Source of the DNA: Shinisaurus crocodilurus
Taxonomy: Eukaryota > Chordata > Lepidosauria > Squamata > Shinisauridae
DNA: 64,000 nt
Assembly: GCA_021292165.1 (NCBI GenBank)
Contig: CM037877.1
Location: forward strand, 213,528,716 to 213,592,715
Direction of reading: 5' to 3'
A program made the translations under genes and the position numbers. Positions 5,434-52,002 of this stretch are shown one piece after another. Numbering within the stretch: the stretch's first letter is position 1; every line of letters starts with the position of its first letter. The notes under the pieces are model-generated. The model worked only from the letters and a program-made list of their open reading frames with translations. It made no database searches and was not told where the DNA came from.

Positions 5434-5613
5434 TGCAATGTTCCACACCACAAATGATTGCTAATGGGAAATACAAGATTCAGAAATCAGAAGACTTTAC
5501 TAATGGGATGTTTGTAGAATACAGCTGTGAGCCTGGATACAAGCTTGAAGGAAACAAAAGAATTTTTTGTACACAGTCTGGGTCCTGGAACTCCTTGCCA
5601 CCAAACTGTGAAT
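5434..5613 (+). CDS. CCP exon B0 (divergent B class)
   Basis: The exon is 180 nt, with acceptor TTTCAACAG and donor GTGAGT. It starts with QCSTPQMIANG and contains F-T-N-G-M-F-V-E-Y-S-C-E-P-G-Y-K-L, which matches the B class (F-T-S-G-M-F-V-K-Y). It is therefore the oldest copy of B, heading unit 0. It has four cysteines and is one codon shorter than the later B exons. Confidence 0.9.
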
Positions 5614-5699
5614 GTGAGTCTCTGGCAGCCTTTTTATTTAAATCATAGTATGCAAATAATACAGCAAATCTAGAAATCTTGCCAGGAAAGATAACATTT

Positions 5700-5860
5700 C
5701 ATACATGACCCTTTAGGTCAGGGGTGAGCAACTTGTGACCTTCCAGATGTTTTGGCCTACAACTCCTGGCAGCCCTAGCCAGCATATCCAGTGGTGAGGG
5801 ACTATGAGGGACTATAAGTTAAAGCATCTGGAGGGTCACAAAGTGCCCATTCCTGCTTTA
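5700..5860. repeat. Interspersed repeat (TTCCAGATG...CTACAACTC...GCCAGCAT type)
   Basis: The same roughly 100-150-bp motif recurs near 55260-55395 and 55935-56040 in this window (CTCCAGATG..., CAACTCCCATCAGCCC..., AGCCAGCAT). It is a dispersed, decayed repeat of unassigned class. Confidence 0.55.
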
Positions 5861-6480
5861 TATGTAAAGAAATCCAAGTTTACAAAGTTAATTTATTACT
5901 ATATATTTGGATGAGTAGTGTTTCATGTTCACTAAGAAGCACGTGTCTCTTGGAATTCTATTTCGGTGCTGGTTTCATCTGTCAGTCAATAGAATCCAAA
6001 ATCCAATGCAATGTGAGAAAGAGTAGTTGCGTTATTTATTTTCTCTTGCTCTTATGTCTCTTGCAAAGTCTCAGCATATGCTCAAAATTCAACTAATACC
6101 CTGGGAAGATGTAGTCCGGCCCATGTAAACATCACTTTCCACTGTGTGTGCAACCTTAGATCAGGATGATGATTTTGTGGAAAGATCTTCCTTACCAGAG
6201 AGATCAGAATCTGTATCAATTACATTGAGGTGCAACAGTCACATCCACTGGAGTTTTATTATGTAAGGGTAAATAGACAGGTTCTGTAGATAAGTATGGC
6301 ACATGAAGGCAAGCATAGACCTTCCCTATCATCTGTCATGAGTGGAAAGGTTGTTGATTGGAGGTGGTAGGAGTGTGGCGAGTAATCTGTGAAGCTAATC
6401 ATGGATAATGAATAATATGTGCCCATGTGAAAAACTAAGTTGCATATGATCAGGGACTTTCATTTTTGTAGATGACAATT
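5861..6480. other. Intron B0-C0, nothing further recognised
   Basis: The stretch is AT-rich intron with no CCP-like exon, no repeat that I can name and no RNA gene. Confidence 0.4.
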
Positions 6481-7640
6481 TTATTTTGTTATTATTTATT
6501 AAAAGTATTTTTAAACTGCCCTTCATCCTAAAATATCAGGGCAGTATACAGAGACACAAAAAACCAAAATATGCCAGAATATAATACAATAAAGGTGTGG
6601 AGAAAGCCAACCTAAGCCCCCTTTCTGACACACACACACTCACCAAGGTGGGGGGAAGGAGACCCAGGGGGGGGAGACAGCCAGTCTCCACAGAGGCCAA
6701 AGGGGACAAACAACATCTGCATAGAATCACCCCAGGGGGGAAGACAGGAAGCATCGCCAGGTTTGTCAATGCTCTCGTATATCAGGCCCATCTACATAAG
6801 ACTTGAATACCTCGCCAGAGCAACACTTCGGCACCCATAAGAAAGGACCACTCAACACCACAGGATGGGACCATTAAGCAAATGGCTTCAAAGGGACCTC
6901 ACCCCACGGGGGGAAGGCATCACCCCACTTGACCCAAAAGGCCGCCCCTCAGGGAGGGTGGCAACCCACCTGATTACAGAGGGAGGGGCTACCTGAAACA
7001 CCAAGGTATAAAACACCCTGTGCAAGGGAACTGAGTTGTTGGACCTGATCAGCAATCTTGCCCCATGCTTGGGGTAAGGGAACGAAGGATCGGCAACCCC
7101 GGGTAGCAGCACCCGGAGTGCTCCAGCTAGCTGAAATCACTGGCCGCTTGGGTTGACCGGACCCCCGGGAAACCAAGCTGAAATCACTGGCCGCTTGGGT
7201 TGACCGGACCCCCGGGAAACCAAACTGAAATCACTCACAAGCCGCTTGGGTAGACTGGACCTCCGCCGGGAACCCAGCTAGCAGCGTGCGGTTGACCGGG
7301 CCTCTGCTGGAGCCCGAGCTGAACTAACTAGCTGAGAGCCCTGAAATCACGGTGTCCTTGAGACTTCTTGCTTGCTACTTTGTACCGTACTGATAAGCTG
7401 TATTGCTGGCGTGTGTCTGGGTTTGTGAAGGTAATTTGTAAATAAACTTGTTTTATAAAAGATACTTTTGTGGCTATAAGTTATCCCTTTGTTCTGGGCT
7501 AAGGGTGATAGTCGCTGGGGACCTCGGAGAAGGCCCGCCCCAGGACTCGCTACCCCCTTAGCATTGAACCCGCGCAGAAGACCAGGTTGTCGGTCTTCCA
7601 CTAAAGGCATAAAACATCACAATAAAAACAAATCAGAAGT
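6481..7640. mobile_element. Roughly 1.0-kb LTR-like or DNA insertion inside a LINE 3' fragment
   Basis: The flanks (6480-6585 and 7627-7650) look like one A-rich LINE 3' tail. The inner segment 6594-7618 is bounded by the octamer ACAATAAA on both sides (6586-6593 and 7619-7626). It contains a TATA-like GGTATAAAACA near 7006, a tandem array (7124-7260) and an AATAAA near 7441, in an order typical of an LTR. The boundary repeats are A-rich and could be fortuitous, and I cannot assign a family. Confidence 0.45.
7124..7260 (+). repeat. Tandem repeat, about 50-bp unit, 2-3 copies
   Basis: Two adjacent almost identical units begin CTGAAATCACTGGCCGCTTG and include a GACCGGACCCCCGGGAAACC segment. 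A third, diverged unit (CTGAAATCACTCACAAGCCG) and a partial fourth follow to about 7330. The array is GC-rich in an AT-rich intron and lies in the LTR-like insertion. Confidence 0.8.
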
Positions 7641-10059: not shown

Positions 10060-10242
10060 TGGTACAGTGCCCCTCACCTCCAAAAGTCCATAATGGGAAG
10101 TACAAGGCCCCAGAATCAATAAAATATACCAATGGAAAATCTGTAAAATACAGCTGTGAACCTGGTTACATACTGATAGGAGAGGCAACTATTTATTGCA
10201 CAGCATCCGGTGCATGGAGTCTCCCTGTCCCACGCTGTGAAG
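10060..10242 (+). CDS. CCP exon C0, probable GC-AG donor
   Basis: The exon is 183 nt, with acceptor CTCCTTTCAG. The domain starts VQCPSPPKVHNG and groups with the C class (V-Q-C-H-Q-P-P-S-V-Q-N-G). It ends P-R-C-E-G like its paralogs, but the base after the G is GCAAGT rather than GTATGT, a typical GC-AG donor. A later GT at 10249 would add two codons in the same phase, so the exact end is uncertain by 6 nt. Confidence 0.88.
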
Positions 10243-14306: not shown

Positions 14307-15567
14307 GTATGTTTCTTCCTCATTGGCACTCGTGGCTGCTTTCACAGTGCACCAAGCTTGCCAACAGCCCTCTGAAGGGCAACCAGCCACCCAACAATTC
14401 AGACAACTGCCATTTAAAAAAAAATATGGCAGCACTTCTGGATCCAAACCAGGTATGCTGCTTCTGAACCTGGAGACACAGTTTAGCATAGGAGGTGATC
14501 CCATAGGCAGAAATGAGATGAAGGAGATAGGAGGAGCTACAGATGGTGGAATCCAGGGGATCTGTGATAGAATGGCTGGGCAGGTTGGTGGAATCTTTGG
14601 CACCTCCACTTTTTGGAGACACCAGCTGACCTTGCCCCATGGCTTTATTATTTAACTCTAGAACTTAGATAAAGTGAGAAGGAATGTTCAGAGTAGTCCC
14701 CCCCCCCCCCAGGTTCAAAACCGCATCTTTAGTTCAGTTCTTAAATTAGAAGAGTGAGTGAAAGGGTGAGTGTAATGTTTTGAAAGTTCCTCTTTACTTA
14801 ATTTCCATACTTCCTATGTATGCAAAGTGAATGAAAAAGTTGCTCTGAATGGCATGTTGTTGTTTTTTTGAACTGTCCATTTCCTTCTACTTCCTATTCT
14901 GCATTAACAATATTCAGGAAGAACACATCTAAAGGAATCACCCTGCAAAATAGCACTTGGCAGGAGACATGTGAAGAGATGTGAATGCCCCCCAGTGTCT
15001 GGTGTGTTGCTATGCAGCATTCCATGTTGCTAATAGCCTCTAGAAAATATCATTTTTCCTAATGTCTTCTACAGTATAGTAGACATTAGAAACCAGAGAT
15101 GTTATTTGCAGGCAGATGGGCTGGGTAGCAACATCTCAGGAACTGGACAATGGAGGTCTCCCCATCCCTTCCTCTCCAAGCTTGCCACACCCAAACCACC
15201 AGTGTCATGAGAACCTGAGAGTCCTTCATTTATTCTCCCCCCCCCCCGTTTATTGTGGCAAGCTGCTATCTTTGTCAAAGAGGGGAGTTGGGAGAGAACT
15301 CTCTCCCTTTCTGCTTTCTGTGGCTTGATACCCTGACAAACCACTAGGAGCCACTGAGGCTTGTGAGCTTGAGGTCTAGATACTTGCTGGCCGCATTTAA
15401 CCTTCCACAGGCAAAGTATGTGCTCTCCTAACAACCTGTGCGCTTTCTGAATATCAAGAATGGCACTTTACCTCATAGTGAGGAAATTTGAAATTGTGAC
15501 ATTGATTGAGAGCTTTTGTGTGAAGGAAATGGTTGTGGAATGCATCCTTTTTCCAGTTTGCATAGGC
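14307..15567 (+). other. C1 downstream intron, fused to E-A intron by a deletion
   Basis: Bases up to about 14993 match the C-D introns of the other units (for example 19284-19962). From about 14995 the sequence matches the E-A introns (for example from 21215). The D and E exons that should lie between are absent. The segment stops at 15567, a few bases before the place where an A exon would lie. Confidence 0.8.
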
Positions 15568-18301: not shown

Positions 18302-18484
18302 AAGACCGATGCCAGCCACCCCCATATGTCCAACATGGGAGTCATAACAAGGAAGAAACAGCAGCCTTTACCAGTGGGATGTTTGTAAAATACACCTGTG
18401 AGCCTGGCTACAAGCTTACTGGAGAGGCAACTATTTATTGCACAGACTCGGGCACATGGTCTTTCCCGGCCCCTCGATGTGAAG
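18302..18484 (+). CDS. CCP exon B2
   Basis: The exon is 183 nt, with acceptor CCCCTTTCAG and donor GTACGT. It begins DRCQPPPYVQHGSHN, so N is replaced by H and the NGS sequon of the other B1-B5 copies is lost. It has four cysteines. It opens the first complete five-exon unit (unit 2). Confidence 0.93.
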
Positions 18485-19100: not shown

Positions 19101-19283
19101 TGGTGCAATGCCACCAACCGCCATCTGTCCAAAATGGGACTCACAGCAACCACGAATCAGCAGTGTTCACCAGAGGAATGTTTGTGAAATACACGTGTGA
19201 GGCTGGTTACACTCTTATTGGAGAGGCAAATATTTATTGCACAGATTCTGGCACATGGAGTCCTCCTGCTCCTCGCTGTGAAG
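19101..19283 (+). CDS. CCP exon C2
   Basis: The exon is 183 nt, with acceptor CTCCTTTCAG and donor GTATGC. It begins VQCHQPPSVQNGTHSNHES, and N-G-T is a sequon present only in this C copy. It has four cysteines. Confidence 0.93.
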
Positions 19284-20048: not shown

Positions 20049-20231
20049 GTATGCATTGTCCATTGCCCCCAAGTATTGTCCATGGAAATTATATTGGAGA
20101 AGACTTCAGATACGGGCAATCTGCAATTTTCATTTGTGATGCAGGCTATTCCCTTGTTGGAGAGCGTGTGGTTTCTTGTATTTTAGAAGGCTCAAACTCT
20201 GTGAACTGGACTGAACCACCAAAATGCAAAG
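20049..20231 (+). CDS. CCP exon D2
   Basis: The exon is 183 nt, with acceptor GATTTACAG and donor GTTCTT. It begins MHCPLPPSIVHGNY and ends N-W-T-E-P-P-K-C-K-G (NWT sequon, shared with D3). The two bases opening the exon are GT rather than the TT seen in the other D copies; both give a valid codon after the preceding G. Confidence 0.93.
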
Positions 20232-20436: not shown

Positions 20437-20622
20437 GGTGCCTTGCACCTCCAGAGATTGCCAATGGGACACATGACACCGAAACTCTGAAAGATTTCCC
20501 TTACGGCTCCTCTGTGACGTACCATTGTGACCCAGGCTACTTTCTTACTGGAGAGGCAACAATCCATTGTCTATCTTCTGGAACATGGGATCGACCTGTC
20601 CCTCAATGTAAAGACAGAGAAT
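20437..20622 (+). CDS. CCP exon E2
   Basis: The exon is 186 nt, with acceptor CTCCACAG and donor GTATGT. It begins GCLAPPEIANGTHDTETL (NGT sequon) and ends P-Q-C-K-D-R-E. The flanking intron is almost identical to that of E3. Confidence 0.93.
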
Positions 20623-21833: not shown

Positions 21834-22001
21834 TCACTGGCATTGTAAGTCCAGAAGTTCAGAATGGAAAAGTAACAGTTTCTGAAGTAGAAGGGGCAAT
21901 TACAATCCAATGTAACCCTGGCTACATCCTCAAAGGCAACCAGACAATTCAGTGCACATCTGACAGGACGTGGGACTCTCCTCTGCCCATTGATGTCATT
22001 G
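21834..22001 (+). CDS. CCP exon A2, two conserved cysteines lost
   Basis: The exon is 168 nt, its frame is intact, and its splice sites are like those of the other A exons. Where the other A copies read T-G-C it reads T-G-I (Cys1 lost). Where they read P-I-C-V-K it reads P-I-D-V-I (Cys4 lost). CCP disulfides are Cys1-Cys3 and Cys2-Cys4, so neither bridge can form. The NQT sequon and the Trp remain. It is either a relaxed module or one that is skipped. Confidence 0.85.
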
Positions 22002-23214: not shown

Positions 23215-23397
23215 AAGTCCAATGCCAGCCACCCCCATATGTCCAAAATGGGAGTCATAACAAGGAAGAAACAGCAGCCTTTACCAGTGGGATGTTTGTG
23301 AAATACACCTGTGAGCCTGGCTACAAGCTTACTGGAGAGGCAACTATTTATTGCACAGACTCGGGCACATGGTCTTTCCTCTCCCCTCGATGTGAAG
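23215..23397 (+). CDS. CCP exon B3
   Basis: The exon is 183 nt, with acceptor CCCCTTTCAG and donor GTACGT. It begins VQCQPPPYVQNGSHN and ends S-F-L-S-P-R-C-E-G. It has four cysteines and an NGS sequon. Confidence 0.93.
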
Positions 23398-23995: not shown

Positions 23996-24128
23996 TCTTC
24001 TTCGTGGTCTCCTTGCTTCACACACATATGGGTTCTCTGCGCCTGCGCTGAGATCGATCGGAAACTTCTTTAGCTGAGATGAGGCAGGCGGGAGCCCCTC
24101 CCCCTTGCGCGTGCTCCTTAGCGCGACT
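23996..24128 (+). repeat. DIRS left inverted terminal repeat
   Basis: The segment includes CACACACATATGGGTTCTCT, GAGATCGATCGGAAACTTC and AGCTGAGATGAGGCAGGCGG, each of which is found inverted at 29829-29960. The outermost about 30 bases differ from the right repeat, which is usual for DIRS. Confidence 0.88.
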
Positions 24129-24409
24129 CCCACCCGTCTCCTCAGTTCCTCTTCGACTACCTTTGCGACGAGTCGTTAAGTTCTTCTCTTCATTCTATCC
24201 ATTCGGAAAAGCTGAGTTTGTTCTTCTTTCTATTCTTCAAAAAGACTATTTTTCTCTCAGAAAATCTTTCATTCTCGATTCTCTTTCGCTCTTCACTCTT
24301 ATTTTTTCAAAAAAAAAAAAAAAAAATCCTATCTAAAACCATCTCTCTCCCCCACTCTTATCCAGTTATATTCTATATCTAAATTTCAACTTCTCTATTT
24401 TTTCCAACT

Positions 24410-33322: not shown

Positions 33323-33490
33323 TCACTGGCTGTGAAAGTCCAGAAGTTCAGAATGGAAAAGTAGCAGTATCTGAAGTGGTAGGGACAATTATAGTCCAAT
33401 GTAACCCTGGCTACATCCTCAAAGGCAACCAGACAATTCAGTGCACATCTGACAGGACGTGGGACTCTCCTCTGCCCATCTGTGTCAAGG
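33323..33490 (+). CDS. CCP exon A3
   Basis: The exon is 168 nt, with acceptor CCTTCGAAG and donor GTATGT. It begins TGCESPEVQNGKVAVSEV, has an NQT sequon and four cysteines, and its Trp is retained. It is closest to A1 in its first 40 nt. Confidence 0.93.
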
Positions 33491-34621: not shown

Positions 34622-34805
34622 AGGTCCGATGCCAACCACCCCCATATGTCCAAAATGGGAGTCATAACAAGGAAGAAACAACAGTCCTTTACCAGTGGGA
34701 TGTTTGTGAAATACATCTGTGAGCCTGGCTACAAGCTTACTGGAGAGGCAACTATTTATTGCACAGACTCGGGCACATGGTCTTTCCCAGCCCCTCAATG
34801 TGAAG
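34622..34805 (+). pseudogene. CCP exon B4, one-base insertion
   Basis: Splice sites (CCCTTTTCAG, GTACAT) and most of the sequence match the other B exons, but the exon is 184 nt instead of 183. Relative to B1 there is one extra C at 34686-34687. Translation after it leads to an in-frame TGA at 34720-34722. Because the exon is phase 1-1, skipping it would restore the downstream frame. Otherwise the long protein would end here. An assembly error is the alternative. Confidence 0.85.
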
Positions 34806-35257: not shown

Positions 35258-35440
35258 TGGTGCAATGCCACCAACCGCCATCTGTCCAAAATGGGGCTCA
35301 CAGCAATCATGAAACAGCAGTGTTCACCAGAGGAATGTTTGTGAAATACACATGTGAGGCTGGGCACACTCTTACTGGAGAAGCAAATGTTTATTGCACA
35401 GATTCTGGCACATGGAGTCCTCCTGCTCCTTGCTGTGAAG
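35258..35440 (+). CDS. CCP exon C4 with a fifth cysteine
   Basis: The exon is 183 nt, with acceptor CTCCTTTCAG and donor GTATGT. It is similar to C3 (G-H-T-L-T-G). The end reads P-A-P-C-C-E-G: the codon before Cys4 is TGC where C0, C2, C3 and C5 have an Arg codon, giving an extra unpaired Cys as in B1. Confidence 0.92.
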
Positions 35441-36575
35441 GTATGTTTCTTACTCATTGGCACTTGCGGCTTCTTTCGCAGTGCACATTGCATGCAAACA
35501 GCCCTCTGAAGGGCAACCTGCCACCCAACAATTCAGACAACTGCCATTTTTAAAAAATGCCAGCACCTCTGAATCCAGATCAGGTATGCTGCTTCTGAAC
35601 CTGGAGACTCAGTTTAGCTTTGATAGATGATAGGAGATGATCCCATAGGCAGAAATGGGATGAGGGAGATATGAGGAGCTATGGATGGTGGAGTCCAGGG
35701 GATCTGTGATGGAATGGCTTGGCAGGTTGGCGGAACGTTTGGCAACTCCGCTTATTGGAGGCACCAGCTCTCCTTGCCCCATGGCTTTATTATTTAATCC
35801 TATAATTTAGATAAAGTGAGAGAGAATGTTCAAAGTACTTCCTCCCCTAAGGTATGAAACCGCATCTTTAGTTCAGTTCTTAAATTAGAAGAGAAGGAGA
35901 GTGAAAGAGAGTATACTGTTTTGAAAGTTCCTCTTTACTTAATTTTCATACTTCCAATGTCTGCAAAGTGAATGAAAAACTTGCTCTGAATGGAGTGTTT
36001 GTTTTTTGAAATGTCCATTTCCACTTTCGATTCTGCATTAACAATATTCAGGAAAAACACATCTAAAGGATTCACCCTGGAAAACAGCAGTCAGCAGGAG
36101 ACATGTGTAGAGATGTAAGTCCCCCCCCAAAAAAAATATTAAGAGGAAAAATGTTCTTCCCCTGGGACTTATGAAATATTTTCTTCTAGAATGTTTATTA
36201 AAATGTTTAAGACAAAGTGTTAATATATAATGCTATGTAATCTTTCTTCCCCAAAATAATTTCTAAAAACAATGCAATAGGAAAAGTTATATTTATTTTA
36301 TGTACAGTATCAAATCATTACAAGTCCTGTACACTGAGGACAAGCATACAGTGCAGTTTTCAAATGCAAGAGAAAGATGCACAATTTAGCTACTTTTGCT
36401 GTTGGAAGACATGTAACTTGCACCTATTACCATGGCTTCCTGCCATGTGGGAGAGAGAGCTTCAAGTGGCTGTATAACCCGTTGAGCCATGGAGTCAGCC
36501 TCTACTACAATGTCTGCTATAAATGGAGGGATATGTGTTTATTCTCAGGTGGCATTTTATTTTATTCTTTTGCAG

Positions 36576-36758
36576 TTATGCGTTGTCCATTTCCCCCAAG
36601 GATTGTCCATGGAAATTATATTGGAGAAGACTTCAGTTATGGGCAATCTGCAATTTACATTTGTGATGCAGGCTATTCCCTTGTTGGAGAGCACGTGGTT
36701 ACCTGTATTTTGGAAGGCTCAAACTCTGTGAACTGGAGTGAACCTCCAAATTGCAAAG
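36576..36758 (+). CDS. CCP exon D4
   Basis: The exon is 183 nt, with acceptor TTTTGCAG and donor GTCCTT. It begins MRCPFPPRIVHGNY and ends N-W-S-E-P-P-N-C-K-G. It has four cysteines and an NWS sequon. Confidence 0.93.
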
Positions 36759-37159: not shown

Positions 37160-37345
37160 GGTGCCTTGCACCTCCAAAGATTGCCAATGGGACACATGAC
37201 ACCGAAACTTTGGAAGATTTCCCTTATGGCTCCTCTGTGACGTACCATTGTGACCCAGGCTACATTCTTACTGGCGAGGCAACAATCCATTGTCTATCTT
37301 CTGGAACATGGGATCGACCTGTCCCTCAATGTAAAGACAGAGAAT
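37160..37345 (+). CDS. CCP exon E4
   Basis: The exon is 186 nt, with acceptor TCTCCATAG and donor GTATGT. It begins GCLAPPKIANGTHDTETL, with G-Y-I-L in place of G-Y-F-L. It has four cysteines. The following intron is the transposon-rich one of about 9.1 kb. Confidence 0.93.
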
Positions 37346-38007: not shown

Positions 38008-39252
38008 ATTTGAAGGACTGTAGCAACAGTATATCGGGCAGGAAGTTCTAATGACATGGAGAGCCAGTTGAGAGCAGGACCTCCCATAAACTGTATATAT
38101 TTCATATTGGATATAACTTTTGCATTATATCTAATTCAGGGTATGACTGTTAATGGAAATAGTTGGGAATCATGCATGCAGGGGATGTTTGCTATACCAT
38201 GACATAATGAGGAATGCCTTTCTCACCTATGAGGTCAACACAATCTCTGTGTCTGTCTGTTTCTGAATCTTTAGATTACTACTATGTACCAATGATCTCA
38301 ACCAATATTTGATTTTTCTTTTCCTTTGGGTGGCCTTGGGTGGTGGTAGGAACTATCTTCGTGATCTTCTTCTCTGATTTGCGTTTTAAATGACGAGGAA
38401 GAAAAACTCGCCTCCTAACCTCCTCCCACCCATTCCTGAATCTCCCTTCTCTCCTTCCTCCCTCCCTGGACTGATGTTGCCAAACCTGATGTGTGTAGAG
38501 AAATTGTGTTTTCCTAATGTCTGCTACAGTGTAGTAGACATTAGGAACCAGAAAGGTTATTTGCAGGCAAATGTGCTGTGTAGCTGCATCTCAGGAACTG
38601 GAAGATGGAGGCCTCTGTGATGTTATGTTATTTGGGTTTAAGTTTAAAGTGTACAGGTGGTAAATATAATGTGTATCTGTATTAAGTATAAGTATGCCTT
38701 CCTGCTGTATCTGGGTGAGTGAGAAAGGATGGAGAATTGTGTATTTGCATATGTGGTATGATTGGCTGAAAGGGTGAGAAGGGGGGTAGAGCCTGTGTTA
38801 TATAAACAGTAGGAGGTAATGTTCAGACAGGTTTGAGGGTTTTTGAGGGTTTTGTGAAGAAGGTTTGAAGGTTTTTGTGGGAAAGAGAAAGGAGTGTGTG
38901 GAATGTGAAGTGCTGTTTGGGAGTTTGTGAAGCTGATTAGGAGAGTTGAGCAATTAGGACTGTTCAGAGTTTAGCTAGTGAGTGCAGGGATTGATATTGG
39001 GAACAGTTGTTGAGGGAGGATTGGTACTAGGATAAGACAGTACATTACTTAAGATTATCTGAAACTTACACATCAAACTTATTTCCAGAACTTGTTGTAT
39101 TTTAAAATAAACTTTCTTTGTTATTTGAAACAGCCTGTGTGGGAAGCTGTGCTTATTGTACTGATCAATGAGGTATAAGGTAGGGATTAGACATTCCAAA
39201 GGCAGTGTGAGAGGTATAATGGCAAGGGTTAGTGGAAAAGAAAACCCCCAAC

Positions 39253-39998
39253 TGTCGAAACGTTGCTGCTGCCAGCCTGCCACACGTAGCAGAGATAGGA
39301 GTTGTTGTGTGCAAGCTCGAAGAATAATGAGGAGACGTGAGCTCATCAGTAGAAACTTTTACTGAGGTTCTTCATGCATAGATTCATTACAATTTACAGC
39401 TATACAATTCAGTGCAAGGCTCCCCATGTACGGCACAAAAGGCATAGAGTCAAAGACTAGTGGGGAGAGAATATTACAGCATATAACTCCTCCCCTCTCA
39501 ACACTGTTTATGACCTTGGGCTAGCGATGCATCCAAGCTGGGTCGGCGCCTCCAAGTCGATTTTCGGGCTTGGCGCCGATCCGACTCCATTTTCTGAGCG
39601 GCGCACTGCGCCGCTCGATTGGGCTGCTCCGGCCCATCCGACGCTTCCAAGAGGCGTTGGAACCCTGCGTAGGCGCAGAACGCGCCACAGGGGTCCAGCA
39701 CGCCTGCGCAGGCCAGGGGTCCGTCGCGTCATTTCCGGTCCCGGAAGTGACGCGATGGGATGGATCGGGCCGCGCGGGCGGCTCGCAGCGGAGTGGGCGA
39801 GCCGCCCCAAAGAAGAGGTAAGGCCTCGCCGGGTGTGAGTGGGGCCAATTTCGGCCTCGTTCTGCCCCGGCGAGGCTCGATTGTCAATCCTTGGGCACAC
39901 TGCCTGACTTTAACAAGTTACACTCCTTAATAGAACTTCTGTTCACAGGTGCTCTGCTGTAGTCCTTTCTGCTCAAGGACACATTTCACTCTCTGACA
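39253..39998 (-). repeat. Copia 3' LTR (interrupted)
   Basis: The LTR runs from TGTCGAAAC to CTCTGACA. It aligns with 44789-45157 throughout, apart from a 367-bp insertion and small substitutions (for example TTCATGCATAG against TTCACACATAG). Confidence 0.9.
39522..39888. mobile_element. Non-autonomous DNA transposon in the Copia LTR, 8-bp duplication
   Basis: The insert is 367 bp and CpG-rich (TAGCGATGCATCC to CTCGATTGTCAAT). It is flanked by CCTTGGGC on both sides (39514-39521 and 39889-39896), and the intact sister LTR has one copy of this octamer. An 8-bp duplication suggests hAT, although clear terminal inverted repeats are not visible. Confidence 0.75.
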
Positions 39999-40011
39999 CC
40001 CCTCCTTGTCC
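39999..40011 (-). other. Copia polypurine tract
   Basis: On the minus strand it reads GGACAAGGAGGGG directly before the 3' LTR, the expected plus-strand DNA primer site. Confidence 0.8.
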
Positions 40012-40028
40012 GCAGACAGAAAGGGTTT

Positions 40029-41325
40029 TTATTTTCCTTTATTAAAGATCACCATCCCTATTTCTGAACATAGTTCTTTGAATCTTGGCCCAGACAGTGG
40101 CTTAGTAAATATATCTGCTATATTTTGCTCTGTTGGACAATAGATCAACTCAATTGTCTTTTTCTGCACATAATCACGAACATTGCAGTATTTCACAGCT
40201 ATATGCTTTGTGAGCCCCTTCAAATACTCAGATTTTGCCATTGCAGAGCAGGCTTGATTATCACAGTACACATGAACTGTAATGCCACTTGTAAGCCATT
40301 CCAAGCTGTTACTGTGGGCTGTGCTGCATATCTACCCAAAATTCCAGTGCTTAAGGCCAAGTCTGGCCTAGACCACTGTGCAAGATAAAGTAGACTTCCA
40401 ACCAATGATTGATAACGTTCTTTGTCAGAGAAAAGTTCCTCTGACTCAGAAGAATGCAAAAAATCTGTTGTCATTGGGGTTTGTACACTTTTACAATCAG
40501 CCATTCCATAAGACTCTAACAATTGGATTATTTTATGCTTTTGGCTCAACAATATGTTACCATTGTCATCCTTGAGCACTTGAACCCCCAGATAATGAGA
40601 CACTTCACCTAATGACTTCAAGAGAAAACTCTCTCCCAGTTGTCTAGCCAATTCTTGAATTTGTTCAATGTTGCTAGATAAACAAAGTATATCATCAACA
40701 AAGGCAAGTAACACCATATAACTGGAACCTGAACCTCTAGTGTAAAGACACGGATCAGCAATGCCCTGCTGAAAATGCAACTGGATTAATTTGTCATTTA
40801 GACACTTGTTCCATACACGGGCAGATTGTTTTAATCCATACACTGCCCTGTGCAGTTTCCATACTACCCCAGCTTTTTCTTCAAATCCAGGGGCAGGATG
40901 CATATAAATTTCCTTCGTAAGATCTGCATTCAGATATGCTGTGGTAATATCAAAATGGTGAATTATGAGACCTTGCTGTGCAGCCAATGAGAGAACAAGT
41001 CTCACACTATCACTTTTTGCATTTGGGGCAAAGACCTCATCATAATTCAAACCTTTAACTTGAGAAAACCCTTGTGCTACACTTTATGAGTTTGTTCTTC
41101 ATTAAGAGAGATTTTCCTTTTAAACACCCAGCGACTACCCGTCACTTTTACACCAGGTGGTGCTACACATGGTGTATAAACCTCATTGCGCTGAAATGAA
41201 GTCATTTCAGCCTGCATGGCATCTTGCCATTTTTGTTTTTCTGGATCTGGTAATTCTTGTACCAGATCCAGATCATAAGTTTCTGGTTCACTAAATGTGA
41301 CATTACATACTCGAATCCCAGTCAC
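40029..41325 (-). pseudogene. Copia reverse transcriptase / RNase H, frameshifted
   Basis: The RT N-terminus lies at 41325-41077 (G-S-R-W-V-F-K-R-K), and the palm at 41050-40220 (F-D-I-T-T-A-Y-L-N-A, Y-G-L-K-Q-S-A-R-V-W, and catalytic F-V-D-D at 40702-40691). RNase H with Y-C-D-N-Q-A-C and a D-I-F-T-K-P-L end lies at 40304-40029. The three segments are in different frames, so there are frameshifts near 41080 and 40220-40300. Confidence 0.88.
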
Positions 41326-41432
41326 TACAAATCTCTCTGATGGTACACCTTTTGTTGCTCGTTGGGATCTGCAAACGGCAGATTCAACATTCTCAGTTTG
41401 ACTGTCTTCCCCCCCTTCCCCCTAGCCCCTCC

Positions 41433-42234
41433 CAGGGATGTTGAAGAGTCCTTGGTCTCGAGTCACGAGTCGAGTCACGAGTCGAGTCACGAGTCGAGTC
41501 ACGAGTCTTTGGACCCAAGTCTCGAGTCCGAGTCCTTGGTCCAAAATGGTGACTCACGAGTCCCGAGTCACTCCCAAAACTGACTCCAAGAGTCCCTATT
41601 AAAATCAATGGGGTTTCCCCCCAACAAAATAAGGCTGCTTCAGCTGTGTGGCTTAAATAAATTCTAGGCACAAGTGTGCCTTTTTATTTCAAAACTTTGC
41701 CACTGATTTTGGCAAGAATAGACCAGGCAGACAAACCCAAAATAACCAGGCAGGCAGAGGAGGCAGGGAGCCCCAAAGCAGGCAGGCAGAGGTCTTTGTC
41801 TTGGACAGTTCAAACTGTGGAACTGGTTAAGAAGAGACCAGGCAGGCAGAGGAGGCTGGGAACCCCAAACAGGCAGGCAGAGGCAGCCAAACCCAAAATG
41901 TCTGACCCTAACCCTAACCCCAACCCCCTACAACAACATATCAATCAAAATAAATCTCAACACATTGTTGGGGTTGCACTCCTGGTAGTTGTCCATAGTG
42001 GCCGAGCAGCGGTGCGCCTCGCTTCCATGCGCTCTTCACCGGTGATTGCGCTCCTCTCCACTCCTTCTGGCACAGCCCAGGGGTGTTGACGAGTCCTTGG
42101 TCTTGAGTCCCGAGTCCTTGGTCTCGAGTCCCGAGTCGAATCTCGAGTCCCATTAAAAATATTGGGACTCGAGTCAGAGGGGGGACTCAGTCCGACTCAC
42201 GACTCGAGTCCTCGAGTCCGAGTCCCCATCCCTG
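41433..42234. mobile_element. hAT-type non-autonomous element, 802 bp, in Copia pol
   Basis: The ends CAGGGATG and CATCCCTG are perfect inverses, and the flanks carry the 8-bp duplication GCCCCTCC (41425-41432 and 42235-42242). Subterminal regions at both ends are packed with GAGTC/GACTC motifs (about 41450-41570 and 42085-42215). No transposase is visible. Confidence 0.9.
41457..41510 (+). repeat. Short tandem repeat of GAGTCACGAGTC, about 4 units
   Basis: A roughly 14-bp unit (GAGTCACGAGTCGA) is repeated within the left subterminal region of the hAT element. Its inverse complement is the same motif family found near the right end. Confidence 0.85.
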
Positions 42235-42242
42235 GCCCCTCC

Positions 42243-43200
42243 TCATCTGAGCTAGTGGGGGTGGAATGTGTGTGTGTGTGGCTTCTCGAGCTGCCTTCTC
42301 CGTTGCTTTCGCTTTCCGCCTCTTGCTGAGCTGTTAGCTCAGGCTTATCATGGACAGGCAACAAAACTTCAGGATTGGCATGAATTCTTTCCCATCCCTC
42401 CTCAACAAAAGTTGCATTTTGCGAGATAACAACCCTGTTATTTCTACAGAAAAACCTCCATGACTTTGAACCCTCTGTCCCAGAGTAACCCACAAAACGC
42501 AGTCTTTGAGCTTTTGGTTCTCCTTTTCTCCTTTGTGCCTTGGGGATATGCACGTATGCAAAACTCCCCCAGACTCTCAAATGTTTTAAGTTAGGAGGTT
42601 TACCAAACAACCTTGTGTAAGGGATATCATTTATAGCTGCTGTCTACGTTCTATTACATAAGTAACTTGCTGCTAAGAATGATTCTCCCCAGAATCTTGA
42701 ATTAGATTCCAAACCAGCATCTTTTAACAGACAATCCTTAATTTTCTGTAATTCAGCAAGATGCCTTTGCACAGTTCCGTTCTGCCACGGAGAATATGCA
42801 CAGGATTTTCTGTGCACAATACCTTGGATACTGAGAAGTTGCTGGAACTGATGATTCATGAACTCAGTTCCCAAATCTGTTTGCAATTGCAACACATTTT
42901 GCTTAAACTGTTTCTGGGCATAAGTTAACCACCTTTTGAAAACAGAATAAACATCTTTTTTCCTGAGTAGGTAAATCCAACCAAACCTGCTTCTGTCATC
43001 CAGTATCAAAAAAGCATATCTTGCCTCTCCCCAGCTTGGAGGAAAAGGGCCACATAAATCTGCATGTACTAACCCGAAAAGTGTGTCAGTCTGTCTATCA
43101 GATTTACGGTTTATAGGCTAGATACGGGACTTTGCTGCTTTGCACACACCACAGTTCAAATATTTGTTACATTTGTTTGGTTGTAAGCCTTCACATTCTT
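42243..43200 (-). pseudogene. Copia integrase region, stop codons
   Basis: The integrase core (about 43060-42645) contains the first catalytic Asp in H-A-D-L-C-G-P-F, then T-D-L-G-T-E-F with the second Asp, and a Q-N-G-T motif. The C-terminal part (42610-42243) has L-R-V-W-G-S-F-A-Y-V and F-V-G-Y. Stops at 43118-43120 and 42642-42644 interrupt an otherwise common frame. The zinc-binding H-x-R-x-L-G-H and C-x-x-C residues lie just upstream (about 43245-43145). Confidence 0.85.
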
Positions 43201-43497
43201 TAGACATCTTTTGAATAGTGTTGAAATTTGGGTGCCCTAGTCGTCTGTGAAACAGATGCGCACATTGTGAATGTGGAGGGGCATTTAAGCTTGCTACAGC
43301 AGGGATGTCTCCTCCCTCAGTATTTTGGTTTTGTAATACATACAGACCATTAATTTACTCTCCTGAGGCAATTCTTTTCCCTGCCTTTGCCACAATGCCT
43401 CCTTCTTGTGAAAAACTGACATTATACCCATTTGCAATCAAAGAGAATACACTTAAAAGTGAGTAATCTAAGGAAGGCACAAATAACACTCCCTGCA

Positions 43498-44700
43498 TTA
43501 CATTGCCAAGACAATTAACCCTATACAAGTCCCCTCCCCCAAGATAGGCAATTTATGTCCATCTGCCAAAGCAATAGTCTTACTGTTTTCGTTCTTGGAG
43601 ACAGGAGTAAACTTGACAAATTGTTCATATGAGTTGCAAATAGTTCTTGAACTTCCACTGTCCAGAATCCAAGAGTCCATGCCGAGTTTTCTGTCCAACT
43701 CTACAGCAGCTGAGAATAGAGTAGCTTTCTCCTCCCTCCTTTCCGACTGCATTCCTTTCTTCTCAGGGTCAGGCTTGGAATTTAGTTTCACTTTACAATT
43801 TTTTCGAATATGCCCCGGTCTGCCACAACGATAACATTTCCTCACAATGACCATAGCTCTTTCTGTTCCGGCTTCTCCAGCCTTCTGAGGTGTTATTTTT
43901 CCTTTGGTTGTGCCATTGCCACGTTTTCCCATACAGCCAGAAGAAAGGTTGTTTTTAGCTGCTTCTTCCAGCTCTAACAGCCTTTTCGCCTCAGCTTCAA
44001 TCAGACATCCTGACAGGTACTCCATTGTAAGCTGATCCTCTGGCATGGCCTCAAGACTGGCCACTAAAATGTCCCAAGATGAATCAAGAGAAGAAATAAC
44101 AATCTGTACCTGCTGGATTTCTTCTAATTGCTGGCCCCTTTCAGCAAGTCGAGCCAGTAATCCAGTGATCACTTGCAAGTGTTCAGACACTTTTTCTCCC
44201 TCTTGTAACTTTTTGTTATACAGTTGTCATGCCAGTGCTATTTTAGTTCCAGCTGTGGTACGTACATGTATCCGCCTCAGTGTCCTCCAGCATTCTGCAG
44301 CTGTCTGAAGCCTTCTAACATACATTAACTGTGAATCTTCAAGGCCCAAAACTATTAAAGAGTGGGCTCTGTCCATCAGTCTCCGTTCCGCAGGACTAGG
44401 CGCTGCCGGAGGAGCATTCACTCCCACCGCCCATAAATCCTCTCTTTTCAGCAACATTCGCATTTTAAACTCCCATGACAGATAGTTCCGATTGTTAAGT
44501 CGCTTGACATACACACCAAGAGGTTGCTGAGGTGCTGCCATGACTTCAATATTGGGAGCAGGTTGTATCAGCTGTTCCTCACCTTCTTCCTCCTCTTCCT
44601 CAGACTTTATTCTGTCTGTATCATCCTCCAGCTTTTTCCCGTGAGCCAGCTTTCCGGAGATATGAATGCAGCTAAACCACTGCTCCTCCAACTGTCTCAC
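43498..44700 (-). pseudogene. Copia gag and protease, one internal stop
   Basis: The frame 44700-44230 is the gag N-terminus, with an acidic stretch and W-E-F-K-M-R-M-L-L. A TGA at 44227-44229 interrupts the same frame, which then continues to 43498. It contains a CCHC zinc knuckle (C-x2-C-x4-H-x4-C, 43836-43795) and the start of an aspartic protease (I-L-D-S-G-S-S). Downstream protease and linker sequence is decayed. Confidence 0.88.
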
Positions 44701-44774
44701 AAAGCAAATGGACTATCTTCGGTTGCAATGCACACCTCCTCACCAGGAAACACACCGTTACGCAGCTGAAGAAT

Positions 44775-44788
44775 CTGGGCCCATAACC
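44775..44788 (-). other. Copia primer-binding site (internal initiator tRNA-Met)
   Basis: On the minus strand GGTTATGGGCCCAG immediately follows the 5' LTR. Its complement CTGGGCCCATAACC is the anticodon-arm segment of initiator tRNA-Met (CAT anticodon inside), as in Drosophila copia. This implies a half-tRNA primer rather than the tRNA 3' end. Confidence 0.85.
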
Positions 44789-45157
44789 TGTCGAAACTTT
44801 GCCGCCGCCACACGTAGCAGAGATAGGAGTTGTTGTGTGCAAGCTCGAAGAATAACGAGGAGACGTGAGCTCATCAGTAGAAACTTTTACTGAGGTTCTT
44901 CACACATAGATTCATTACAATTTACAGCTATACAATTCAGTGCAAGGCTCCCCATGCACTGCACAAAAAGCATAGAGATAAAGACTAGTGGGGAGAGAAT
45001 ATTACAGCATATAACTCCTCCCCTCTCAACACTCTGTTTATGACCTTGGGCACACTGCCCGCCCGACTTTAACAAGTTACACTCTTTAATAGAACTTCTG
45101 TTCACAGGTGATCTGCTATAGTCCTTTCTGCTCAAGGACACATTTCACTCTCTGACA
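44789..45157 (-). repeat. Copia 5' LTR
   Basis: The LTR is 369 bp, from TGTCGAAAC to CTCTGACA on the plus strand. It is the uninterrupted reference for the left LTR. Confidence 0.9.
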
Positions 45158-45547
45158 CCAACCTTACATAAGCACACCCAGAGATCCTAATGAGGAGGGC
45201 AAGCTTGAGGCCCTATGGGGGGGGTATGACAGCCTCTCCCTCCCTTACTCTCCAAGCTTGCCACACGCAAAGCACCAGTGTCGTGAGAACAGGAGAGTCC
45301 TTCTTTTATTTCCTCTCTTTGCTTGCTGTGGCCAGCTGTTATCTTTGTCAAAGAAGGGAGTTGGGCGAGAACTCTCTCCCATTCCACTTTCTGCTGGCTG
45401 TGGCTTGATACCATGACAACCCACTAGCAGCCACTGAGGCTTGTGAGCTTGAGGAACAGATACTTCCTGGTCAATTTTAACCTTCTGCAAGCAAAGTATG
45501 TGCTCTCCTACCAACCTATGCCCTTTCTGAAAATCAGGAATGGGGCT

Positions 45548-46479: not shown

Positions 46480-46647
46480 TCTCTGGTTGTGTAAGTCCAG
46501 AAGTTCAAAATGGAAAAGTAACACTATCTAAAGTGGAAGGGACAATTACAATCCAATGTAACCCTGGCTACATCCTCGAAGGCAACCAGACAATTCAGTG
46601 CACATCTGACAGGACGTTAGACTCTCCTCTGCCCATCTGCCTCAGGG
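46480..46647 (+). CDS. CCP exon A4, conserved Trp lost
   Basis: The exon is 168 nt, with acceptor CCTTTGAAG and donor GTATGT. It begins SGCVSPEVQNGKVTLSKV and has four cysteines and an NQT sequon. The near-invariant CCP Trp (R-T-W-D in A1-A3) is replaced: TGG has become TTA (R-T-L-D). It ends P-I-C-L-R-G instead of P-I-C-V-K-G. Confidence 0.9.
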
Positions 46648-47621: not shown

Positions 47622-47804
47622 AGGTCCGATGCCAGCCACCCCCATATGTCCAAAATGGGAGTCATAACAACCAGGAAACAGCAGCCTTTACCAGTGGGAT
47701 GTTTGTGAAATACACCTGTGAGCCTGGCTACAAGCTTACTGGAGAGGCAACTATTTATTGCACAGACTCGGGCACATGGTCTTTCCCGGCCCCTCGCTGT
47801 GAAG
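47622..47804 (+). CDS. CCP exon B5
   Basis: The exon is 183 nt, with acceptor CCCCTTTCAG and donor GTACGT. It begins VRCQPPPYVQNGSHNNQET (N-N-Q in place of N-K-E). It has four cysteines and R before Cys4. Confidence 0.93.
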
Positions 47805-48231: not shown

Positions 48232-48414
48232 TGATACAATGCCACCAACCGCCATCTATCCAAAATGGGGCTCACAGCAACCACAAAAAAACAGTGTTCA
48301 CCAGAGGAACGTTTGTGAAATACACATGTAAGGCTGGTCACACTCTTACTGGAGAAGCAAATATTTATTGCACAGATTCTGGCACATGGAGTCCTCCTGC
48401 CCCTCGCTGTGAAG
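48232..48414 (+). CDS. CCP exon C5
   Basis: The exon is 183 nt, with acceptor CTCCTTTCAG and donor GTACAT. It begins IQCHQPPSIQNGAHSNHKK and contains Y-T-C-K-A-G-H. It is more basic than the other C copies (K for E twice, G-T-F for G-M-F). It has four cysteines. Confidence 0.93.
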
Positions 48415-49542
48415 GTACATTTCTTACTCATTGGCACTCGCGGCTTCTTTTGCAGTGCACAAAGCATGCAAACAGTCCTCTGAAGGGCAACCTGCCACCC
48501 AACAATTCAGACAATTGCCATTTAAAAAAAAATATGTCTGCTCCTCTGAATGTGGACTAGGTATTCTGCTTCTGAATGTGGAGACTCAGTTTAGCTTTGA
48601 TGGTTGATAGGAGGTGCTCCGATAGGCAGAACTGGTATGGACGAGATAGGAGGAGCTATGGGTGGTGGAGTCCAGGGGATCTGTGATTGGAATGACTTGG
48701 CAGGCTGCTGCTGACGCCTATAAAGCTTAGAATAGAAGCTGCAGTGGATAAGCACCTTCACTGACACAGGAGTCATCAGCCTCCACTGGTAACCCCCCCC
48801 CCCCCAACGTTTGAAACCACATCTTTAGGTGAGTACTTCAATTAGAAGAGAGAGAGAAAGTGAGAGTACTGTATGGAAAGTTCCTCTTAACTTAATTTTC
48901 TGACTTCCTATGTCTATAAAGTGAATTAAAAACTTGCTCTGAATGTCATTTTTGGTTTTGAAATGTCCATTTTCTTCATTTCCTATTTTACATTAAAAAT
49001 ATTTAGTAAGGACATATCTGAAAATAATCGCCCTGCAAAATAGCAGCTGGGAGATTATATGCGTAGAGATGTGAATGCCCTCCCAAAAAAGAAATTAAGA
49101 GGAAATTTTTTTCCCCATTTCCCCCCCCCCCAGGACTTATGAAATATTTTCTTCTAGAATGTTTATTAAAATGTTTAAGACAATGTGTCAACATGTAATG
49201 ATACTGAATGTTCCTCTTCCCCCCAAATGATTTCTAAAAACAATGTAATAGGAAGACTGTTATTTATTTTATGCACAGTATCAGATCATTACAGGTATTG
49301 TACACTGAGGACAAGCAAACAATGCAGTTCTCAGATGCAAAATAAACCTGCTCAGTTTAGCAAATCTTGCTGTAGGAAGATATGTAAGTGACACCTGTCA
49401 CCACGGCTACCTGCTATGTGGGAGAGCTTCCAGTCGCTGTACAACCTCTTAAGGCATGGAGTCAGCCTCTACTACAATGTCTGCTATAAATGGAGGAATC
49501 TGTGTTAATACCCAGTTGGCATTTTATTTTATTCTTCTACAG

Positions 49543-49725
49543 TTATGCATTGTCCATTGCCGCCAAGGATTGTCCATGGAAATTATATTGGAGAAGACTT
49601 CAGTTATGGGCAATCTGCAATATACATTTGTGATGCAGGCTATTCCCTTGTTGGAGAGCGTATGGTTACCTGTATTTTAGAAGGCTCAAACTCGGTGAAC
49701 TGGAGTGAACCTCCAAAATGCAAAG
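49543..49725 (+). CDS. CCP exon D5
   Basis: The exon is 183 nt, with acceptor TTCTACAG and donor GTTTTA. It begins MHCPLPPRIVHGNYIGED and ends N-W-S-E-P-P-K-C-K-G. It has four cysteines. Confidence 0.93.
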
Positions 49726-50297: not shown

Positions 50298-50483
50298 GGT
50301 GCCTTGCACCTCCAGAGATTGCCAATGGGACACATGACACCGAAACTCTGGAAGATTTCCCTTACGGCTCCTCTGTGACATTCCGTTGTAACCCAGGCTA
50401 CTTTCTTACTGGAGCAGCAACAATCCATTGTCTATCTTCTGGAACATGGGATCAAACTGTCCCTCAATGTACAGACAGAGAAT
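50298..50483 (+). CDS. CCP exon E5
   Basis: The exon is 186 nt, with acceptor CTCCATAG and donor GTATGT. It carries F-R-C-N-P-G-Y instead of Y-H-C-D-P-G-Y, G-A-A-T instead of G-E-A-T, and ends P-Q-C-T-D-R-E. It is the most diverged of E2-E5. It has four cysteines and an NGT sequon. Confidence 0.93.
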
Positions 50484-51417
50484 GTATGTGAGGGCATATT
50501 TACTTTTTTCAGTAGAAGGGCAGTAGTAACAGTATATCGGGCAGGAAGTTCTAATGACATGGAGAGCCAGATGAGAGCAGCACCTCCACTAAAGTGTATA
50601 TATTTCATATTGGATATAACTTTTGCATTAGATCTAATTCCTTGTATGACTGTTAATGAAAATAGTTGGGAATCATGCATGCAGGGAATGTTTGCTATAC
50701 CATGACATAATAAGGAATGCCTTTCACACCTATGAGATCAAGGCAATCTCTATGTCTGTCTGTGACTGAATCTTTAGATTACTACTACTAATGCTCTCAA
50801 TCAATATTTGATTTCTCCCCCTTAGATGGCAGTGGGTGGTGTTGGGAGCTTTATTCATGCTCTCACTCAGACTCACCTTCCCAAGCTCAGGTTCAAATAA
50901 GAGGAAAGCATAGCAATGTCTGAATTCTTCTCTGCTTTGTGTTTTAAATGAAGAGGAAGAACAACTCGCCTCCTAACCTCCTCCCACCCATCCCTGAATC
51001 TACCTTCTTCCCCCATTCCTGGACTGATGTTGCCAAAATTGACATGTGGATAGAGAGAAGATGGTCTGTCCCCCCCCACCTTTTTAGTGCCTAGTGTGCA
51101 GCATTCCAGGTCACTAATAGCCACTAGGAAATGTTGTTTTCCTAATGTCTGCTACTGTGTAGTAGACACTAGGAACTGGACAGGTTATTTGCAGGCTAAT
51201 CTGCTGGGTTGCAATATCTCAGAAACTGGAAGTATCTCCCTCCCTTCCTTCTTCTCCAAGCTTGCCACACCCAAATCACCAGTGTCATAAGAACAGCAGA
51301 GTCCTTCTTTTATTTCCTCTCCTTGCTTGCTGTGGCAGGCTGTAATCTTTGTCAAAGAGGGGAGTTGGGAGACAACTCTCTCCCTTTCTCAGCAGCAGAT
51401 AGGACCTACCTTACTTA

Positions 51418-51553
51418 GGATCATAGAGTTGGAAGGGACCTACAAGGCCATCAAGTCCAACCCCCTGCTCAATGCAGGAAACTAGAGGAGGGGTCTCCCA
51501 TCCAAGTAATAACCGGGCCTGACCCTGCTTAGCTTTCCATGCTCAGACAAGCT
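51418..51553 (-). mobile_element. SINE fragment: 5S rRNA-derived part plus CR1-like tail
   Basis: On the minus strand, 51553-51488 matches the 3' half of vertebrate 5S rRNA (AAGCAGGGTC, TACTTGGATGGGAGACC with few changes). It is followed by 51480-51418, which reads GGTTGGACTTGATGGCC, CTTCCAACTCTATGATCC, the usual CR1 3' end. A 5S-type head joined to a CR1 tail is the structure of a SINE3-like element. It is truncated and not a 5S gene. Confidence 0.75.
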
Positions 51554-51834
51554 GGCTTGATACCAAGACAACCCACTAGCAGCCACTAAGGGTTGTGACC
51601 TTGAGGGCCAGATACTTCCTGGCCCATTTTTACCTTCTGCATACAAATAGTTGGGAATACTGACCCATGCCCTTTCTGAAAATCAGCTACGGGGCTTTAC
51701 CTCATACTGACAAAATCTCAAATCATGAGTTTCACAGCAAGGTTTTGTGTGAAGAAAATGGTTGTGCAATGCATCAGCTTTCCAGTTTGCATAGGCTATG
51801 GAATCTAATGCTGGTTTTATCCTTTCCTTTGAAG

Positions 51835-52002
51835 TCACTGGCTGTGTAATTCCAGAAATTCAGAATGGAAAAGTAACATTATCTGAAGTGGTAGGGACAA
51901 TTACAATCCAATGTAACCCTGGCTACATCCTCAAAGGCAACCATACAATTAACTGCACATCTGACTGGATGTGGGACTCTACTCTACCCATCTGTGTCAA
52001 GG
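51835..52002 (+). CDS. CCP exon A5
   Basis: The exon is 168 nt, with acceptor CTTTGAAG and donor GTATGT. It begins TGCVIPEIQNGKVTLSEV. NHT and NCT sequons overlap Cys3. It has four cysteines, and its Trp is retained in W-M-W-D-S-T-L-P-I-C. It is the last class-A copy. Confidence 0.93.

What the first reader, a model, noticed from the sequence alone, without database searches (positions are those of the whole stretch)
5434..52002. A receptor built from a repeating five-CCP unit (B-C-D-E-A), six units long
The CCP exons fall by sequence and length into five classes that recur in fixed order, with matching introns, over units of about 5 kb once transposons are removed. Human CR1 repeats seven CCPs and CR2 about four, so a five-CCP period in a sauropsid gene would be an independent expansion. 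Unit 0 (B0, C0, D1, E1, A1) is diverged while units 2-5 are near-identical even in introns, so the expansion, or its homogenisation by gene conversion, is recent.
Basis: partly seen in the sequence, partly recalled or inferred. Interest (0 to 1): 0.78.

Follow-up and report, generated by a model that had tools for sequence, protein, structure and literature searches.

The report
Lizard complement receptor with amplified five-domain unit
This is the membrane-anchored end of an immune receptor of the CR1/CR2 kind, probably from a lizard, in which a block of five small domains has been copied about six times; the block is shared with other lizards, but more copies were seen here than in the relatives examined.

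Summary
Each class clusters in a tree of the exons.

Corrections. Unit 1 keeps only B and C. One B exon is frameshifted; one A-class exon lost two cysteines. 'B0' and 'C0' are separate old classes. Alignable blocks are 80-98% identical between units, not near-identical throughout.

I also found the gene's 3' end (last CCP, microexon, transmembrane and tail exons), so it is a CR1/CR2-like receptor of a squamate.

The unit is not new to this animal: Sceloporus and Varanus models each hold one complete L-A-E-P-H run plus partial ones. The window's copies are on average closest to each other, but some Varanus copies nest among them. The closest unit pair changes along the unit, which suggests gene conversion or staggered duplication. 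A dead sixth CCP lies between C and D in three units; it is intact in many other squamates.

I rate it a new variant of a known kind.

The parts
4772..4939 (+). CCP exon class Q (before the array)
5434..5613 (+).
10060..10242 (+).
14994..15567 (+). intron remnant of unit 1 (A-E intron type); exons L, A and E of this unit are missing
   Evidence: aligns to 21215-21792, 12364-12924, 32722-33284
18302..18484 (+). unit 2, class P
19101..19283 (+). unit 2, class H
20049..20231 (+). unit 2, class L
20437..20622 (+). unit 2, class A
21834..22001 (+). unit 2, class E, decayed: Cys I and Cys IV replaced (frame open)
23215..23397 (+). unit 3, class P
30001..30183 (+). unit 3, class H
31049..31228 (+). 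relic of a sixth CCP (class X) in unit 3, not an exon
   Evidence: stop, matches split over frames, no GT after the last Cys
31291..31473 (+). unit 3, class L
31682..31867 (+). unit 3, class A
33323..33490 (+). unit 3, class E
34622..34805 (+). unit 4, class P, frameshifted (184 bases)
35258..35440 (+). unit 4, class H
36380..36513 (+). relic of class X in unit 4
36576..36758 (+). unit 4, class L
37160..37345 (+). unit 4, class A
46480..46647 (+). unit 4, class E (conserved Trp replaced by Leu)
47622..47804 (+). unit 5, class P
48232..48414 (+). unit 5, class H
49345..49449 (+). relic of class X in unit 5 (best preserved; 70% identical to Lacerta X over 30 residues)
   Evidence: Pfam finds no family in 49309-49449
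49543..49725 (+). unit 5, class L
50298..50483 (+). unit 5, class A
51835..52002 (+). unit 5, class E (end of the array; no P or H exon was found after it)
55596..55775 (+). membrane-proximal CCP exon, class T
56593..56622 (+). 30-base microexon GSFVSASIGS between last CCP and membrane helix (by similarity and splice sites)
   Evidence: compare ASYVSAAIGF of Sceloporus P0020
58231..58306 (+). transmembrane exon SLVGVMLFLFLSGGIWAIVSKKNK
60693..60771 (+). cytoplasmic tail exon with stop, KYTLGNRKIYRNPDSEVDSPSSIPL
24001..29780 (+). retrotransposon inserted between P and H of unit 3 (RVT_1 + RT_RNaseH; DIRS-like by recalled appearance; ends approximate)
38503..45232 (-). stretch with a copia-type LTR retrotransposon between A and E of unit 4 (ends approximate)
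   Evidence: RVT_2, Retrotran_gag_2; repeats 39252-39521 and 44788-45051, 93.4% identical

Best explanation
The window holds the membrane-proximal part of a single-pass complement receptor gene of the CR1/CR2 kind from an unnamed squamate, probably a lizard near anguimorphs or iguanians. Its array grew from a five-CCP unit (L-A-E-P-H) that already existed before this lineage split from Varanus and Sceloporus. Unequal exchange raised it to about six copies (one lacking L, A and E, the last followed by no P and H), and gene conversion or staggered partial duplications made the copies mosaic; part of this may predate the split from Varanus. The unit once had a sixth CCP (X) between H and L, which died, probably before the copies multiplied. 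Shown: exon anatomy, classes, order, 3' end, the same unit in annotated proteins of other lizards, changing partners between units. Inferred: one transcript; C3-fragment binding by CR1-type repeats expected upstream of the window; and that the array serves as a long flexible stalk that lifts those sites off the membrane and/or adds avidity.
For: Exons, phases, splice sites. Order test and class tree. Closest solved proteins are CR1 (3.1e-258) and CR2 (2.2e-133); Pfam Sushi. Relatives named complement receptor type 1 or 2 of lizards, snakes and turtles. Same cycle in Sceloporus and Varanus models; P and H types there by tree. TM and tail exons found once in the window; joined end; alignment. 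Within-window aa identity (L .86-.95, A .82-.96, E .76-.90, P .91-.95, H .84-.96) against the best mean for a copy of 16 other squamate models (.83.83.75.77.76). Most similar unit pair differs between blocks: P U2-U3 (94%), H U1-U2 (100%), A U2-U3 (94-95%), A-E intron U0-U3 (100%). Pooled pN/pS below 1 (L .42, P .45, H .54, A .75, E .75; frameshifted exon left out). X relic.
Against: No transcript was available; one-gene splicing is inferred and the relatives' proteins are gene predictions. Two of 29 exons are damaged. The L donor scores poorly in all five copies on an ad hoc matrix from memory. pN/pS of A and E (.75) is nearer to neutral. In single-CCP trees of low support a Varanus copy falls inside the window's L and E groups, and the window's A exon at 50300 groups with Podarcis and Lacerta, so lineage-specific amplification is not clean; identity ranges to outside copies touch the within-window ranges in L, A and E. 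In Sceloporus, both P/H modules of the first pair fall in the P group. The L and E blocks give no clear partner (57% and 66%). The N-terminal part of the gene is outside the window, and ligand binding was not tested.
Confidence: 0.74

Rival explanations
1. One reading: a five-CCP repeat invented independently in this species by recent duplication.
For: Window copies are on average closer to each other than to outside copies; at 90 bits no protein among the 247 held has more than 3 L modules, the window has 5.
Against: Sceloporus P0020 and Varanus P0132 have the same cycle; the P/H split predates the split from iguanians in the tree, with modest support, and Varanus copies nest among window copies in L and E.
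Confidence: 0.12
2. A decaying pseudogene array: the receptor is no longer expressed and the units are drifting.
For: One frameshifted exon, one exon without Cys I and IV, weak L donors, pN/pS of .75 in A and E.
Against: 27 of 29 exons are open with their cysteines; pN/pS .42-.54 in L, P and H; TM and tail exons are open and conserved. The damaged exons are flanked by phase 1 introns and could be skipped (inference).
Confidence: 0.12
3. Several separate short CCP genes rather than one transcript.
For: No cDNA; the array spans some 50 kb with large retrotransposons inside.
Against: The T class and TM and tail matches occur once, after the last unit; the microexon was sought only between T and TM. 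Annotated receptors of Sceloporus and Podarcis join L and A modules with T and TM in one protein.
Confidence: 0.06
4. The unit is the same cycle as the four-CCP repeat of mammalian CR2 (b-c-d-P), with the P-type CCP doubled into P and H.
For: Alignments to human CR1 and CR2 place L on CCP2/6-type (CR2 CCP4) and A on CCP3/7-type (CR2 CCP5) modules (alignments partly cut); class d's closest profile is E; P and H are sister classes in the exon tree (79.4/88).
Against: Profile comparison: L is closest to Q, then c, and only eighth to b; A is closer to P/H, Q, X, K, S and E than to c. At fixed score thresholds L and A were found only in squamates.
Confidence: 0.4
5. An assembly artefact that duplicated one region.
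For: Tandem arrays are prone to misassembly.
Against: Aligned blocks of the units differ by 2-20% and the units carry different insertions and deletions.
Confidence: 0.03

Closest known systems
[quoted passage not shown]
   Same: Receptor built from tandem CCPs, amplified by a long repeat unit; best solved match. The macaque CR1 ends with a CCP scored as class T, then TM and tail. Human CR1 forms have 23, 30, 37 or 44 CCPs (PMC10518620, passages).
   Different: CR1's repeat is seven CCPs (same passages); here it is five with a dead sixth slot. The amplified part lies next to the membrane.
Human complement receptor type 2 (CR2, CD21)
   Same: Second best solved match; repeats of about four CCPs (reader and recalled), close to the five-CCP order if P is doubled.
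   Different: 15 CCPs (title of a reference seen) against at least 29 here; L and A have no proven one-to-one counterpart.
Sceloporus undulatus complement receptor type 2 (P0020) and Varanus komodoensis CR2 (P0132)
   Same: Same five-CCP cycle, one complete L-A-E-P-P run each plus partial runs; the Sceloporus protein end aligns with the window's T, microexon, TM and tail.
   Different: Sceloporus has 3 L and 3 A modules; Varanus P0132 has 2 and 2, with two more L in P0001 (models fragmentary); the window has 5 and 5.
Pogona vitticeps, turtle and Paroedura CR1/CR2 proteins
   Same: Same receptor family; their models also show tandem amplification of CCP blocks.
   Different: A different block: a-b-c-d-P type repeats in Pogona, a-b-c-d-E-P in Natator, a P module five times in a row in Paroedura.

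Membership tests
CR1/CR2-type complement receptor | Ectodomain made of tandem CCP (sushi) domains | tested here: met
   29 CCP exons; Pfam PF00084 in the two CCP proteins submitted, a five-CCP composite and the last CCP
CR1/CR2-type complement receptor | Closest relatives by sequence are CR1 and CR2 | tested here: met
   PDB search: CR1 3.1e-258, CR2 2.2e-133; named relatives
CR1/CR2-type complement receptor | Characteristic last CCP, transmembrane helix and short cytoplasmic tail | tested here: met
   T exon, microexon, TM and tail found and aligned
CR1/CR2-type complement receptor | N-terminal LHR-type CCPs (a-b-c) that bind C3b/C4b | not testable with these tools
   None of the 28 window CCPs scored is of class a, b or c (the frameshifted one was left out); such repeats are expected beyond the left edge; the own-genome search did not complete
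CR1/CR2-type complement receptor | Binds C3 fragments | not testable with these tools
   Needs protein
CR1 long homologous repeat (seven CCPs) | Period of seven CCPs | tested here: not met
   Period is five: 23 of 24 transitions
Mammalian CR2 four-CCP repeat | Each module of the unit homologous, in order, to b, c, d and P modules | tested here: inconclusive
   Register fits; profiles support E~d but not L~b or A~c specifically
Squamate L-A-E-P-H module | Same five classes in the same order in another species | tested here: met
   Sceloporus P0020, Varanus P0132; the split into P and H rests with modest support

The most novel reading that the evidence does not exclude
Squamate and other reptile lineages may each have amplified a different block of the same complement receptor (LHR in Pogona and turtles, P alone in Paroedura, L-A-E-P-H here), with unit number still changing within species by exchange and conversion, as in human CR1 length forms. 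The receptor would then be a fast-turning domain array shaped by pathogens, and this animal's array would vary in length between individuals.
Probability: 0.3. Interest if true: 0.62.

Novelty: new variant of a known kind. Interest (0 to 1): 0.47.

Why it matters
Human CR1 exists in forms that differ in the number of CCPs. A lizard receptor with a different period, a dead extra slot and mosaic copies gives a further case of how such arrays grow and are kept uniform, and suggests that the block that gets copied differs between lineages. It also shows that predicted receptor models of squamates should be checked for collapsed or missing units.

Tried and rejected
Rejected: that B0 and C0 are unit members. 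Rejected: that the unit is unique to this species. Left open: L = class b and A = class c (for, against). A half-CCP hit at 8277-8348 was dropped: weak score and no donor. A splice-score scan for C-terminal exons found nothing and a motif scan for tails was uninformative; homology later found them. A first microexon scan found nothing; a looser one gave 14 candidates, of which I took 56593-56622 for its match to relatives and its donor. A frame slip of mine gave a wrong TM translation; one search has the right one. In one search the A exons ended one base short; one search has the right ends. In one search, without a score threshold, an invertebrate protein (P0024) got 5 L calls and P0041 4; the 90-bit threshold dropped them. 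Likewise an Alligator module called A (P0016) did not reach 95 bits. Own-genome search: five tries, never answered. Literature: seven searches (one search returned no paper) showed no title or abstract start on a five-CCP repeat in squamate receptors; the listings are capped. I saw passages of PMC6683126 and PMC10518620, and only listings of the rest. Structure prediction was not run.
Full report
What is there. An HMM built from the window's own sequences found 29 complete CCP exons, all on the + strand. Each has AG before it and phase 1 at its start; apart from the frameshifted one, each keeps phase 1 to its donor, which is GT except for one GC donor after the exon at 10060-10242.

Classes and order. 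The tree of the 29 exons recovers every class, E with the lowest support (67.7/84). Nucleotide self-comparison shows that intron stretches match too. So the periodicity is real.

Corrections. Unit 1 has only P and H: L, A and E are missing, and the intron remnant at 14994-15567 runs straight on from the H intron. The last unit has L, A and E, and no P or H exon was found after it. Exon P of unit 4 is frameshifted; exon E of unit 2 has lost Cys I and IV. Block identity between units, exon plus intron, is 0.80-0.98; self-BLAST pieces go lower, and several 200-base flanks are not alignable.

The 3' end. Translated comparison with 19 squamate receptors found a TM exon and a tail exon, and a scan of the interval a 30-base microexon between the last CCP and the TM exon. 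The joined end reads ...VPVCKP-GSFVSASIGS-GSLVGVMLFLFLSGGIWAIVSKKNKV-KYTLGNRKIYRNPDSEVDSPSSIPL-stop and aligns with Pogona (68% identical), Sceloporus, Podarcis and others. T, TM and tail were each found once, after the last unit, which favours one gene.

What it is. A 296-residue composite (E0, P1, H1, L3, A3) finds human CR1 (3.1e-258) and CR2 (2.2e-133) first among solved structures. Protein searches return complement receptor type 1 or 2 of Sceloporus, Varanus, Heteronotia, Podarcis, Anolis, snakes and turtles. The best identity listed was 58%, so the host species itself is probably not among those searched. The T-TM-tail tree puts the window beside iguanians with support of only 0.10 (some of its rows do not end in T), while L, E, P and H copies of Varanus fall near the window's. 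I therefore say squamate, probably a lizard near anguimorphs or iguanians.

Is the unit new? Class strings of relatives show the cycle in Sceloporus (E P P L A E P P L A K P L A T) and Varanus P0132 (P L A E P P L A); the scan does not tell P from H. In the tree the second pair of Sceloporus is P then H, but both modules of its first pair fall with P; the Varanus module at 281 of P0001 falls with P and the one at 103 with H. Of the 247 proteins held (the lists were cut at 120 each), 23 hold an L module at 90 bits or more and 21 an A module at 95 bits or more; every one is a squamate. The models were seeded mostly on squamates, which favours this, and modules below the thresholds, such as one called A in Alligator, were dropped. 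Sceloporus has the most L modules, 3; the window has 5. So the unit is older than this lineage, but its number here is the highest seen. Window copies are on average closer to each other than to copies of 16 other squamate models, with overlap at the edges in L, A and E. In the trees a Varanus copy falls inside the window's L and E groups, and the window's A exon at 50300 groups with Podarcis and Lacerta. Part of the amplification may thus be older than the split from Varanus.

How the copies changed. The most similar pair of units differs between blocks: P block U2-U3 (94% of bootstraps), H block U1-U2 (100%), A block U2-U3 (94-95%), A-E intron U0-U3 (100%); the L and E blocks are undecided (57% and 66%). 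Within one set of units, U0, U2 and U3, U2-U3 is closest in the A block (0.969) but U0-U3 in the next intron (0.936, against 0.876 for U2-U3). Simple whole-unit duplication would give one partner throughout. Gene conversion or staggered partial duplications fit better; the data do not separate these two. The two large retrotransposon stretches sit in single units (24001-29780 in unit 3, 38503-45232 in unit 4), so they came after the copies.

The dead sixth slot. Between H and L, units 3, 4 and 5 carry a degraded CCP; Pfam did not recognise the unit 5 relic. Intact versions (class X) lie directly before L in Podarcis, Lacerta, Rhineura, Anolis, Hemicordylus, Eublepharis and Paroedura, and a truncated model in Heteronotia; snakes have a similar module there that my models call Q. 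Sceloporus and Varanus P0132 have none before L. The unit 3 and unit 5 relics share the altered stretch with a stop and lack a donor (sequence), so X most likely died before the copies multiplied. None was found in units 0 and 2.

Selection. Pooled pN/pS is 0.42 (L), 0.45 (P, frameshifted exon left out), 0.54 (H), 0.75 (A), 0.75 (E): constraint on L, P and H, less on A and E.

Relation to mammals. In the alignments shown to human CR1 and CR2, L falls on CCP2/CCP6-type and A on CCP3/CCP7-type modules. Profile-profile scores do not single these out. The idea that the unit is the four-CCP repeat of CR2 with P doubled is attractive but not shown.

Function. In CR1 the C3b/C4b sites lie in CCPs 1-3, 8-10 and 15-17 (PMC10518620, passages). 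By analogy, a-b-c repeats expected upstream of the window would bind ligand, and the array in the window, in which no a, b or c module was scored, would act as a long stalk or add avidity. The same passages give 108 nm as the theoretical extended length of 30-CCP CR1, and 55 nm measured because it folds back; 29 CCPs would be of similar size. This part is inference.

Noticed in passing
24001-29780: Retrotransposon with RVT_1 and RNase H domains and a separate frame without Pfam hit, inside unit 3; looks DIRS-like (recalled).
   Followed up: partly
38503-45232: Copia-type LTR element on the - strand inside unit 4, LTR-like repeats 93.4% identical.
   Followed up: partly
1-996: Reverse transcriptase (RVT_1) frame on the - strand; further frames up to about 2871 look like the same LINE-like element. 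Bases 1-166 recur inverted at 56862-57027 (97% identical).
   Followed up: partly
62818-63438: GIY-YIG domain frame on the - strand, Penelope-like (recalled).
   Followed up: partly
17125-18166: Minisatellites (periods 64/130 and 142) lie in the stretch where the L-A-E exons of unit 1 are missing.
   Followed up: partly
10766, 20231, 31473, 36758, 49725: All five L exons have a weak donor (GTTCTT three times, GTCCTT, GTTTTA); models of Sceloporus and Podarcis nevertheless join L to A as PKCKGC, while one L of Varanus P0132 runs on into other sequence.
   Followed up: partly
P0018, P0036, P0044, P0113: These annotated receptors begin with a CCP, linker and membrane-helix block that looks like a neighbouring CD46-like gene fused to CR1 by annotation (recalled resemblance).
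   Followed up: no
P0037 (Paroedura): Five near-identical P modules in a row: another block amplified in a gecko model.
   Followed up: no
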